Shown one piece after another: positions 3,558 through 51,812 of a stretch of 64,000 bases of DNA (the first letter of the stretch is position 1; every line of letters begins with the position of its first letter). The notes under the pieces are model-generated. The model had not been told where the DNA came from, ran no database searches, and saw nothing but the letters and a program-made list of their open reading frames with translations. A program made the translations under genes and the position numbers. The stretch is from Pseudanabaena sp. UWO311 (lineage in GTDB: Bacteria > Cyanobacteriota > Cyanobacteriia > Pseudanabaenales > Pseudanabaenaceae). The DNA lies in assembly GCF_006937785.1 (NCBI RefSeq), contig NZ_SJEE01000018.1, forward strand, positions 1 through 64,000, in the 5' to 3' direction.

Positions 3558-3621
3558 GCCATTTACTCCCAGAAATAGTTGAAATTTACTCGTTTACAAC
3601 ATCTTGCGCTGAAACTAGAAC

Positions 3622-3672
3622 CAAGATTTTTGTTGCAAGTGCTGCTATGCAGCACTTGCAACAAAAATCTTG
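3622..3672. repeat. 24-bp intergenic hairpin
   Basis: A perfect stem from CAAGATTTTTGTTGCAAGTG through GCTGC/GCAGC around a TAT loop. It sits upstream of cruF in a 308-base gap (3558-3865) that holds only this and the next hairpin. Confidence 0.8.
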
Positions 3673-3806
3673 TGGTTCTATTGCTCGCAAATCACTATAA
3701 GTTTGAACTTTGCTTTAAGTAACTTAACAAAAGTATAAGCTAGCATACCATTCATTTTTGAGTTTGATGTTTACAGCACTTAAACCTCTACAATTCTCAT
3801 TTTGAG

Positions 3807-3857
3807 CCCTATTTTTGTGTTTCCAGCACCTTTGGCGCTGGAAACACAAAAATAGGG
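3807..3857. repeat. Hairpin behind the TPR gene
   Basis: CCCTATTTTTGTGTTTCCAG pairs with its complement, with one A/C mismatch near the TTT loop. It begins nine bases past the minus-strand TPR stop. No T-run follows, so it may be a processing or stability element. Confidence 0.7.
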
Positions 3858-3865
3858 TTTTTTAG

Positions 3866-4372
3866 CTATTTTGCTGCCCAAATAGCTAAAAGTAAGAGGG
3901 AACTTGCGATCGCCACCCACAAAAAATTGTTAGAGCTATTGGTATTTGGTTTTTCAAGGGAAACCTCACGAAATGGCTTTTGCTCTTCTGAACTTTTACT
4001 TCTAGCGACAGGTTTAGATTGATAGGTGTCAGGTGACTGTAAAATCGGCACTTCAGAGACAACACCTTCGAGCTTACTCAATTGCGGTGCGGTCAAAATC
4101 CCCAACATATAACGCGCTGACTTTCGCACACTATTAACTGGGTGTTTTTTGAGACTGCGACATATAGCAACTGCTTCTTCTGTTTTACCAACTGCATCAT
4201 AGGCATTAGCTAGCCATACGAGAATTTCGCCGCCCAAAGTAGTTTCTAAAACAGCTAAAGCACGAGCGCGTTCAAGCAGTGCGATCGACTGCTGGTAGTT
4301 ACCATTCTCAAAGTTACTCACCCCTTCTTGATATAGCTGCGATGCTAGCTGTTCTGCACTGACTTCTTCCAT
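3866..4372 (-). CDS. TPR-like protein with C-terminal membrane anchor
   Basis: 168 residues. The N-terminal half (about 8-95) has two to three TPR-like helical pairs (LYQEGVSNFENGNYQQSIAL; LVWLANAYDAVGKTEEAVAI). A polar linker follows, and a single hydrophobic segment at about 150-166 (FLWVAIASSLLLLAIWAAK) ends the protein, typical of a tail anchor with the TPR part in the cytoplasm. The function is unknown; a scaffold or assembly role is a guess from TPR proteins in general. It is transcribed after the Nudix gene but separated from it by a hairpin and about 170 bases. Confidence 0.7.
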   Translation of the reverse strand: MEEVSAEQLASQLYQEGVSNFENGNYQQSIALLERARALAVLETTLGGEILVWLANAYDAVGKTEEAVAICRSLKKHPVNSVRKSARYMLGILTAPQLSKLEGVVSEVPILQSPDTYQSKPVARSKSSEEQKPFREVSLEKPNTNSSNNFLWVAIASSLLLLAIWAAK

Positions 4373-12068: not shown

Positions 12069-12135
12069 TTAATTTTAATTGGACTGACTAGGGTTACGAA
12101 TTTCAAAAAGCAATATTCCCACAATTCTCATTATA

Positions 12136-12189
12136 AAAATTGGTTTTGATGAAAGTCTGCCCACGTAGACGTTCATCAAAACCAATTTT
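12136..12189. repeat. Left of two overlapping hairpins
   Basis: AAAATTGGTTTTGATGAA pairs perfectly with TTCATCAAAACCAATTTT, and a second short GTCT/AGAC pairing sits inside. Its right arm shares ACCAATTTT with the next hairpin. Confidence 0.85.
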
Positions 12190-12233
12190 GGTATGTTCAG
12201 CTCTTACAGAACAGAACATACCAAAATTGGTTT
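12179..12233. repeat. Right of two overlapping hairpins
   Basis: AACCAATTTTGGTATGTTC pairs with GAACATACCAAAATTGGTT. Because bases 12179-12189 belong to both stems, the two structures exclude each other in full. Confidence 0.85.
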
Positions 12234-12308
12234 CATAATTTAGAGTTGACAGCAATATTCTCAACAAAATACAACAAAGCATAAAACGTCTTAGAATGAC
12301 AAGAGTGA

Positions 12309-17376: not shown

Positions 17377-17423
17377 ATATTTTTGATAAAAGCCACGCGA
17401 AGCGTGGCTTTTATCAAAAATAT
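17377..17423. repeat. Intergenic hairpin
   Basis: ATATTTTTGATAAAAGCCAC pairs perfectly with its complement, with an ACGC/GCGT core and GAA loop. It lies upstream of the GT4 gene. Confidence 0.8.
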
Positions 17424-20383: not shown

Positions 20384-20418
20384 AAAAGCTCAAAATAGCG
20401 TAACCATTTTGAGCTTTT
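20384..20418. repeat. Family B hairpin behind ylxR
   Basis: AAAAGCTCAAAAT pairs with ATTTTGAGCTTTT. It begins four bases after the ylxR stop, and its T-rich right arm allows termination. Confidence 0.8.
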
Positions 20419-20445
20419 ATAGCTAATTTCACTTGTCTTAAGACA

Positions 20446-20508
20446 CATAAAACCCAAGAATTGGTTTGCGGCGCGGCGCGCCGTCAACCAATTCTTGGGT
20501 TTTATGTC
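20446..20508. repeat. Family C hairpin, second copy with conserved right flank
   Basis: CATAAAACCCAAGAATTGGT pairs with its complement, and the GC-rich core is imperfect. The right flank ATGTCCTAGTACACTTGGCG matches that of the copy at 8503. Confidence 0.85.
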
Positions 20509-20556
20509 CTAGTACACTTGGCGACAGCTATAAAACCCAGACTGGGTTTATTTTTT

Positions 20557-20590
20557 AATTTTCGAAAGTGTCGCTACACTTTCGGAAATT
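20557..20590. repeat. Family A hairpin upstream of galE
   Basis: AATTTTCGAAAGTGT pairs with ACACTTTCGGAAATT around CGCT. GGTATAAA follows directly, about 33 bases before the galE start, and could act as its -10 region. Confidence 0.8.
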
Positions 20591-23142: not shown

Positions 23143-23613
23143 GGGAGAGTAAGCGTGTGGTTGCGAAATTTGTCTCAAAATAAACGAAAGGATATTTCGA
23201 GCACAAATTTTGAGGAAAGTCCGGGCTTCCACGAAGATCAGGCTGCTGGATAACGCCCAGTGCGAGCGATCGTGAGGATAGTGCCACAGAAAAATACCGC
23301 CCTTTGTAGACATGGCGCGAAGCGCTATGTCTACAAAGGGTAAGGGTGCAAAGGTGCGTTAAGAGCGCACCAGCAGAGTCGTGAGGCTCTGGCTCGGTAA
23401 ACCCCAGTTGGAAGCAAGGCGAGAGGATGCAAGTGTTGAGATCTTCAGTTGATCTTGTATCCGTTGCTTGATGTGGTGGTCTAGTGAAAACTAGGCGATC
23501 GCAATTAAGTGTGTGCCGCATGAGGTATTTGGTAACAAATATCCCAGATAGATAACCGCTAAGGCAGTTGATAAAACTCCTGAAACAGAACCCGGCTTAT
23601 GTCTTACTCTTTC
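23143..23613 (+). ncRNA. rnpB: RNase P RNA
   Basis: The catalytic core is unmistakable: GAGGAAAGTCCGGGC at 23212-23226, GATAACGCCCAGTGCG, then AGGATAGTGCCACAGAAA, GGTGCAAAGGTGCG, GCTCGGTAAACCCC, and the 3' AGAACCCGGCTTAT. The ends pair as helix P1 (GAGAGTAAG near 23145 with CTTACTCTTT near 23603). Helix P12 (23300-23340) is a 19-bp hairpin resembling the dispersed repeats of this genome. The RNA processes tRNA 5' ends with RnpA, whose gene is not here. An imperfect terminator-like hairpin follows at 23627. Confidence 0.97.
23300..23340. repeat. Hairpin forming helix P12 of RNase P RNA
   Basis: CCCTTTGTAGACATGGCGC pairs with GCGCTATGTCTACAAAGGG around GAA. The GGCGCGAAGCGC core is the same as in intergenic hairpins at 46549 and 47948. 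Confidence 0.85.
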
Positions 23614-23626
23614 TATTAAAATTCTC

Positions 23627-26594: not shown

Positions 26595-26646
26595 GAAGCT
26601 ATCAAACTAAACACAGATAGGATTTTATAGTGCTTTCTGGTTAAGT

Positions 26647-26705
26647 AACCCAATAAATTTTTTGAAAGTATTACTTTTCAGTACTTTCAAAAAATTTATT
26701 GGGTT
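26647..26705. repeat. 24-bp hairpin
   Basis: AACCCAATAAATTTTTTGAA and its complement, perfect over 24 bp, with CCCAA ends as in family C. Confidence 0.85.
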
Positions 26706-27008
26706 GGTTTATCAAAGCCTAAACTTTTAAGTAGAAACACTTAGTAGAGACACAAATAGAAGCCATCTTAATGTTTTCTTAATTATTAAAACCTTTACCT
26801 TAAATCTAGAAATCCCTCAAGAAGATTGTTATGAAAGCATTACAGGAATCAGTTAAGACATTATTAAGTTTATATTTTATTCGGGATCGCTGAAAAGCAT
26901 CCTAAGACAGGATTTGGACTTACTTGAGCCTCTATTACTACCCTGCATAATTAAATCAATTAATAAATTGCATTTAATAAATTTTTGGCAAAGCCAAATT
27001 TAAGATAT

Positions 27009-27520: not shown

Positions 27521-27577
27521 CATAAAAACCAAAGAGCCTTACGACGCTAAGCATCGCAAGGCTCTTTGGTTTTTATG
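27521..27577. repeat. 20-bp hairpin with CATAAAAACC ends
   Basis: CATAAAAACCAAAGAGCCTT pairs perfectly with its complement. The inner CGACGC/GCATCG pairing has mismatches. Confidence 0.85.
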
Positions 27578-27593
27578 AGAAACTCCCATTATT

Positions 27594-27648
27594 AAACAAA
27601 CTTGGTAATTCGTAGCGCCGCTGGCGAAGAGAATTATCAAGTTTGTTT
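27594..27648. repeat. 18-bp hairpin
   Basis: AAACAAACTTGGTAATTC pairs with GAATTATCAAGTTTGTTT, with one G/T wobble and a GCGCC/GGCG core. Confidence 0.8.
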
Positions 27649-27872
27649 TGATTAAATTCTGATAACAGTGAACTTTAATTAAAATAAATTTTGAAAATGA
27701 GAATTGCTGGATTTTTTATACCCTACTTAATATCTCTAATCAGGAAACTAATCTTTGAATAGTGAGAACTGTTAGATGCTAAGCCAAGCTCCAAATAATA
27801 TGTAATCTGTAGTAAATTTACATGTGATAATCTTAATTAATTGAGAATTAGCAAGTCTGTAATAGGTAAAAA

Positions 27873-51600: not shown

Positions 51601-51663
51601 ATCCTGTTGAAACTGATACTAATCGTCAAAAAATTTTAACTTGCAGCGATCGCCATTTCCCAC

Positions 51664-51812
51664 AGTCTTCTCTCAATGCCTACGAGGTTAGCTGACGGGC
51701 TAGGACTGAGAGATGTCCTTTTTCAGATTCATTCTGAAAATACGCCCCTATGCTCTTAGAGAACTTGGTTCCCCCGTTTTTTGTTTTACTTTAGGTAATA
51801 ACTTAGAGATAA
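51664..51812 (-). ncRNA. Cyclic di-AMP riboswitch (ydaO/yuaA type)
   Basis: On the minus strand the leader carries the class hallmarks in order: CGGGGGAACC (near 51777-51768), GGGGCGTATTTT (where the class has GGGTGAATC), a stem, AAGGAC...GTCC, and the near-invariant CCCGTCAGCTAACCTCGTAGGC block, of which the key parts are CAGCTAACCTCG and TAGGC (51680-51700). Closing stem P1 could be TCTCT/AGAGA. The aptamer binds c-di-AMP and usually turns expression off. It lies 120 bases ahead of the permease gene, so the ABC operon should be under c-di-AMP control. The exact ends are approximate. Confidence 0.9.

What the first reader, a model, noticed from the sequence alone, without database searches (positions are those of the whole stretch)
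12136..12233. Two overlapping, mutually exclusive hairpins between gt4 and the NB-ARC/WD40 gene
The segment 12179-12189 pairs fully with either the left partner (12136-12146) or the right partner (12223-12233). Such a three-way arrangement resembles an attenuator switch or an element inserted into another. It lies in the divergent region of a polysaccharide gene and an NLR-like gene.
Basis: seen in the sequence. Interest (0 to 1): 0.5.

Follow-up and report, generated by a model that had tools for sequence, protein, structure and literature searches.

The report
Hairpin-rich mobile element in Pseudanabaena
The two overlapping hairpins are one copy of a small, gene-less jumping DNA element scattered through the genomes of a cyanobacterium and its relatives, most likely not an RNA switch, and its hairpin arms change together over evolution, which makes it useful for asking how palindromic DNA stays palindromic.

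Summary
It does not look like a switch: both hairpins form together, the shared segment fits either side at equal energy (-40.4 vs -40.2 kcal/mol), and no terminator-like site was found. The object is a 133-bp MITE-like element, window 12119-12251, with terminal inverted repeats and a perfect 9-bp target duplication. At least 80 places in this genome match, as do 22 of 23 genomes of the genus examined and 1 of 15 outside it. In a pooled set, 51 of 77 elements with these ends have 9-bp duplications (control 0.7). A 1.4-kb IS in related genomes has the same ends and duplication length and a transposase, so it is the likely mobiliser; no match was found in this genome. The insertion is shared by six genomes; two aligned ones lack it, a third may hold a remnant. 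At this site hairpin 2 changed on both arms in 12 of 26 pairs while hairpin 1 decays. Replication template switching is my favoured but unproven explanation.

The parts
12110..12118 (+). left 9-bp target-site duplication GCAATATTC
   Evidence: perfect repeat of 12252-12260 (wider direct repeat D1); 9 bp is the duplication length of the family
12119..12251 (+). whole MITE-like element, 133 bp
   Evidence: model R1 match 97.3 bits, 1-131/131 (the window copy was one of the 55 training sequences); TIR + TSD boundaries
12119..12134 (+). left terminal inverted repeat (consensus CAGCAATTCTCATTAT; positions 2-3 differ here)
   Evidence: alignment A1
12136..12189 (+). hairpin 1, arms 12136-12158 / 12167-12189
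   Evidence: family covariation; no covariation at this locus in 5 species
12179..12189 (+). shared core segment, pairs with 12136-12146 or 12223-12233
   Evidence: four core columns three-way concordant in 33 of 55 copies
12179..12233 (+). hairpin 2, arms 12179-12204 / 12208-12233
   Evidence: covariation at this locus in 5 species, 12 of 26 pairs
12236..12251 (+). right terminal inverted repeat (degraded variant)
   Evidence: alignment A1
12252..12260 (+). right 9-bp target-site duplication GCAATATTC
27577..27709 (-). second, decayed copy in the window
   Evidence: R1 52.4 bits, E 2.2e-9
3788..3909 (-). third, decayed copy in the window
   Evidence: R1 43.9 bits, E 1.9e-7

Best explanation
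It is a non-autonomous transposable element (MITE) with 16-18-nt terminal inverted repeats CAGCAATTCTCATTAT(G)A. Its probable mobiliser is a 1.4-kb IS whose transposase is about half identical to a plasmid-borne DDE transposase (PF01609-like, IS4-like) and which has the same ends and makes 9-bp target duplications. Shown here: repeat family, ends, duplication length, IS with the same ends in the genus, shared insertion, sites without it. Inferred: mobilisation in trans, and loss of the IS from this genome. Inside the ends lie two hairpins built on three copies of one core (a, a', a), so the middle copy can pair left or right. In this genome the copy probably sits passively between two divergent genes. 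Its hairpin 2 has been rewritten in both arms in situ. I attribute this mainly to replication template switching between the arms of a DNA palindrome, with selection on structure as the main alternative.
For: Perfect 9-bp duplication at this copy. 51 of 77 pooled TIR-TIR elements have a 9-bp duplication with at most 1 mismatch (0.7 expected, max 3 in 200 shuffles); lengths 4-8 and 10-13 at the same offset give at most 4 of 77 (the pool also holds sister elements with the same ends and some non-Pseudanabaena records). 154 TIR sites in this genome vs 15 for the reversed pattern. 22 of 23 genus genomes (own included) vs 1 of 15 others at E <= 1e-4. IS with the same ends: of 9 loci examined, 6 have both ends 1417-1428 bp apart, and 4 of those 6 have perfect 9-bp duplications; 5 of 26 genus genomes carry the transposase. 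Of 6 plasmid stretches fetched, 3 hold a related 1.87-1.89-kb IS with a 444-aa transposase, each with a perfect 9-bp duplication. Orthologous sites with and without it. Covariation in 55 copies: 216 cells changed on both sides vs 58 shuffled, at most 38 in slid controls. Seven strict orthologous loci against G019: 27 Watson-Crick double changes, 0-3 in slid controls; 35 doubles vs 10.6 if independent (33 vs 11.0 with pairs taken from the other partner's fold); stem change 0.198 per site vs 0.122 in flanks. In the 55-copy set G-T and A-C mismatches show no consistent G-T excess (hp1 inner 19/21, hp2 inner 20/19, hp1 core 4/17, hp2 core 8/5, TIR 18/27). No near-identical donor copy: best other match 79% over the element in this genome and 71% for the G022 copy in G022.
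Against: No transposase match in this genome, so present mobility is unproven. The Pfam and NCBIfam searches were made on the plasmid relatives, not on the 1.4-kb IS itself; one of the two scores below and one just above the PF01609 cut-off, both far below the NCBIfam cut-off. The MITE interior does not resemble the IS beyond the first about 18 nt. Template switching is not shown directly. In the seven orthologous loci single changes do favour G-T over A-C (16 vs 8; 23 vs 15 with the other fold); taking pairs from an RNA fold that admits G-T pairs biases that way, but RNA-level selection is not excluded. One locus (L198/L346) gives 10 of the 27 double changes; 17 remain without it. Flanks may include coding DNA, so the rate comparison is soft. 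At this locus hairpin 1 decays while hairpin 2 does not, which selection on hairpin 2 could also explain. Only 7 of the 15 candidate orthologous loci passed the strict rule.
Confidence: 0.93

Rival explanations
1. A cis-acting RNA attenuator or switch for the GT4 or the NB-ARC/WD40 gene, in which the middle arm chooses between hairpins.
For: Strong fold (z -9.6); the middle arm can pair either way at near-equal energy; position in a divergent intergenic region.
Against: No terminator-like site. Both hairpins coexist. The same unit recurs at 80 or more places. G014 and G004 have the same flanks without the element. Hairpin 1 is not conserved at this locus and is deleted in G016. No Rfam family at the gathering threshold.
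Confidence: 0.03
2. The insertion was later put to use: hairpin 2 is kept by selection at this locus, for example as a processing or stability hairpin in the GT4 leader or as a protein-binding cruciform.
For: Hairpin 2 keeps 91.5% paired cells over 5 species with 12 of 26 pairs changed on both sides while hairpin 1 decays; G016 lost hairpin 1 but kept hairpin 2; G-T exceeds A-C among single changes at the seven shared loci.
Against: Hairpin 2 has Watson-Crick double changes at 4 of the other 6 shared loci too (L198, L215, L386, L387), which would need selection at several unrelated sites. The 55-copy set shows no consistent G-T preference.
Confidence: 0.2
3. The arms change together because copies elsewhere in the genome overwrite this one by gene conversion.
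For: Many similar copies per genome.
Against: No near-identical donor: the best other match to the window copy in its genome is 79% over 118 nt, to the G022 copy in G022 71% over the whole length. The other species were not searched for donors; a donor may have been lost.
Confidence: 0.08

Closest known systems
Prokaryotic MITEs mobilised by IS (review PMC10969869, passages seen)
   Same: Short, AT-rich, TIRs, target duplications, intergenic, structured interior
   Different: Here two internal hairpins share one arm, and arm changes are seen in situ at orthologous sites
Type II MITEs of Anabaena sp. 90 with three inverted-repeat sets A, B, C (PMC3542288, passages seen)
   Same: Cyanobacterial MITEs, multiple inverted repeats, mostly intergenic
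   Different: That paper found no evident similarity to IS ends in that genome; here an IS with the same ends is found in related genomes. Sequences not compared
IS with a PF01609-like DDE transposase, IS4-like (NCBIfam NF033591 far below its cut-off)
   Same: Same about 18-nt ends and 9-bp duplication as the MITE
   Different: 1.4-1.9 kb, coding; interior unrelated to the MITE
Template-switch maintenance of hairpins (PMC8794818; outline with abstract and start of the introduction seen)
   Same: Predicts multi-base compensatory changes in stems
   Different: There inferred from reconstructed histories of RNA genes; here a mobile DNA palindrome

Membership tests
MITE | terminal inverted repeats | tested here: met
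   family TIR CAGCAATTCTCATTAT, alignment A1; 154 sites vs 15 control
MITE | fixed-length target-site duplication | tested here: met
   9 bp, 51 of 77 in a pooled set; perfect at this copy
MITE | repeated, dispersed, intergenic | tested here: met
   80 non-overlapping places (rows merged; one search scored 150 of 3879 candidates, so a lower bound); 1 of 49 copies overlaps an ORF of 120 aa or more
MITE | same ends as an autonomous IS | tested here: met
   IS of 1417-1428 bp in genus relatives
MITE | mobilising transposase present in the same genome | tested here: not met
   0 matches at E <= 1e-10 in G000; 5 of 26 genus genomes positive; a MITE may outlive its IS
MITE | mobilised in trans | not testable with these tools
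   needs a transposition assay
transcription attenuator | mutually exclusive hairpins, one a terminator | tested here: not met
   coexisting folds; no terminator-like site
transcription attenuator | conserved alternative pairing at orthologous sites | tested here: not met
   hairpin 1 no covariation in 5 species; deleted in G016
transcription attenuator | a transcript that crosses the element | not testable with these tools
   no RNA data
IS200/IS605-type hairpin-ended elements | no target duplication, no TIR (recalled) | tested here: not met
   TIR and 9-bp duplication present

The most novel reading that the evidence does not exclude
A mobile DNA palindrome whose arms are rewritten in situ by replication template switching: three copies of one core evolve in concert, and dozens of dispersed insertions in one genus, some shared between species, form a natural experiment that separates template switching from selection on RNA structure.
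Probability: 0.4. Interest if true: 0.6.

Novelty: new member of a known kind. Interest (0 to 1): 0.4.

Why it matters
Covariation is usually read as proof of a selected RNA structure. This family shows strong covariation in what is clearly a transposable element, also at single orthologous sites and, in the 55-copy set, without a consistent G-U bias. It is a warning for RNA-finding pipelines and a test bed for how palindromes are maintained. It also names a probable mobiliser for a Pseudanabaena repeat family.

Tried and rejected
Rfam at the gathering threshold gave only RNase P and a c-di-AMP riboswitch in the window. The two TIRs 1.4 kb apart on contig C58 belong to two MITE copies on either side of an ordinary ORF, not to an IS. 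No IS with both TIRs and a duplication was found among the loci then held. An IS1-type transposase next to one TIR in L087 was followed and dropped: none of 30 loci with IS1 relatives in the genus (some of them from the same IS) has these TIRs at both ends. A viral-contig scan for the TIR gave 0. A literature search for four TIR strings gave 0 papers; 'Pseudanabaena' with 'miniature inverted-repeat transposable' gave 0. Terminator role rejected: none found, and 2 promoter-like sites where 1.8 are expected; 49 copies are not concentrated between convergent genes (16 tandem, 5 convergent, 15 divergent, 13 unassigned, by a rough ORF rule). In the ortholog test 8 of 15 candidate loci were dropped by the boundary and flank rule. 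The per-hairpin tally labels the single hairpin of L191/L359 as hp1 although by sequence it is hairpin 2. Gene conversion was tested only for the own and the G022 copy and is now rated lower for that.

For alignment A1 I chose 55 copies by a filter on length and hairpin motifs plus 5 variants added by hand, so it favours well-preserved copies; fragments were left out. R1 was built from A1, so copies in A1 match it by construction.

On re-reading it has about 50 nt there that resemble the right end of the element, so it is now given as a possible remnant.

Full report
What is there. The two hairpins have 23- and 26-nt arms and share 11 nt. They are not exclusive: two folds of nearly equal energy each keep both hairpins, and the minimum-energy folds of both strands contain both.

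What it is. A search of the window's own genome with 12120-12250 found 73 matching pieces, some of them the element against its own other arm. Printing the copies showed a common unit with terminal inverted repeats. The TIR core AGCAATTCTCATTAT occurs 154 times at up to 2 mismatches, against 15 for the reversed pattern. Of 77 distinct TIR-TIR elements of 38-150 bp in the loci then held, from this and other genomes and including sister elements with the same ends, 51 carry a 9-bp duplication with at most one mismatch just outside CAGC...GCTG (shuffled mean 0.7, max 3 of 77); other lengths at that offset give at most 4. The window copy is 12119-12251 with a perfect GCAATATTC duplication. A covariance model from 55 copies finds 128 matches on both strands at E up to 0.01 in this genome, which merge into 80 places, a lower bound because 150 of 3879 candidates were scored. 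At E up to 1e-4 it matches 22 of 23 genus genomes, own included, and 1 of 15 outside. The window holds further, more decayed copies.

The likely mobiliser. A search of plasmids with the TIR and six fetched stretches led to IS elements of 1.87-1.89 kb on Calothrix, Nostoc and Anabaena plasmids (3 of 6 stretches) with perfect 9-bp duplications and a 444-aa transposase. Two of these transposases match Pfam DDE_Tnp_1 weakly (E 4.6e-4, below the curated cut-off, and 3e-5, just above it) and an IS4 model far below its cut-off. In the genus, 5 of 26 genomes carry a relative (49-54% identical in the longest matches), this genome none at E up to 1e-10. Of nine such loci, six have both ends 1417-1428 bp apart with the MITE's ends, four of the six with perfect 9-bp duplications, a fifth with a 10-nt repeat. 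The interior of the MITE does not resemble the IS beyond about 18 nt. That the IS moves the MITE is inference from shared ends and duplication length.

The locus. The same insertion is present in the own genome, G019, G005, G016, G022 and G011, with the two copies of the duplication still recognisable. G014 and G004 have the flanks without it. G015 has about 50 nt there that resemble the element's right end and may be a remnant. Other genus genomes match the flanks only, but their sites were not aligned. In G016 hairpin 1 is gone. The stretch between the element and the + strand gene is nearly unchanged in the nine aligned genomes, with or without the element.

How the hairpins evolve. Across 55 copies 216 cells are changed on both sides, against 58 in shuffles and at most 38 in slid controls. 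Four variable core columns agree in all three segments in 33 of 55 copies, in seven different sequences. At the window locus over five species, hairpin 2 has 12 of 26 pairs changed on both sides (slid 2-4), hairpin 1 has 2 of 23, as in shuffles: the shared middle arm stays with the right partner and the left one drifts. Over seven strictly orthologous loci between this genome and G019 there are 27 Watson-Crick double changes (slid 0-3) and 35 doubles in all where 10.6 are expected; stems change at 0.198 per site, flanks at 0.122. One locus, L198/L346, gives 10 of the 27. In the 55-copy set G-T and A-C mismatches show no consistent difference (19/21 and 20/19 in the inner stems, 4/17 and 8/5 in the cores, 18/27 in the TIRs); in the seven loci G-T exceeds A-C (16 vs 8, or 23 vs 15 with the other fold), which the way pairs were chosen favours but which I cannot dismiss. 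No near-identical donor copy was found for the window copy in its genome (best other 79%) or for the G022 copy in G022 (71%), which speaks against gene conversion. I read this as a DNA-level process, most likely template switching between palindrome arms (PMC8794818; outline, abstract and start of the introduction seen), but selection on hairpin 2 is not excluded.

Function. No terminator-like site, no Rfam family, mostly intergenic copies without preference for convergent gene pairs. I conclude that the element is probably a passive insertion between two divergent genes. Any effect on them is untested.

Novelty. MITEs are known in cyanobacteria, including ones with several inverted-repeat sets (PMC3542288, passages; review PMC10969869, passages). 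I found no paper with this TIR or naming MITEs together with Pseudanabaena (open-licence library only; further searches).

Noticed in passing
window 51663-51807 (-): c-di-AMP riboswitch (RF00379), 74.5 bits.
   Followed up: no
window 23145-23615 (+): RNase P RNA class A, 244.3 bits.
   Followed up: no
L052 1473-1515, L057 1501-1543, L107 430-472: 43-nt solo elements: TIR - one core - TIR, with 9-bp duplications at 0-1 mismatch. Either deletions between the direct core repeats or very short mobile units.
   Followed up: partly
L090, L091, L136, L150 (139 bp): Sister elements with the same TIR and 9-bp duplication but a different interior, so one transposase may move several families.
   Followed up: partly
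L278 2501-2631 (Anabaena cylindrica PCC 7122 plasmid pANACY.02): A 131-bp element with the related TIR CAGCAATTCTCATTTTG and a perfect 9-bp duplication; interior not compared.
   Followed up: no
L145 5-244, L137, L103, L151: Elements with the same TIR in assemblies labelled proteobacteria and other cyanobacteria: a broad IS/MITE group, or contamination of the assemblies.
   Followed up: no
window 3570-3909: Two decayed copies about 100 nt apart; also weaker matches at 17377-17423, 20417-20557 and 26628-26742.
   Followed up: no
L149 4708-5566: A copy with the hairpins in swapped order and a second end 859 bp on, bracketing a guanylate-kinase-like ORF (identity recalled, not searched).
   Followed up: no
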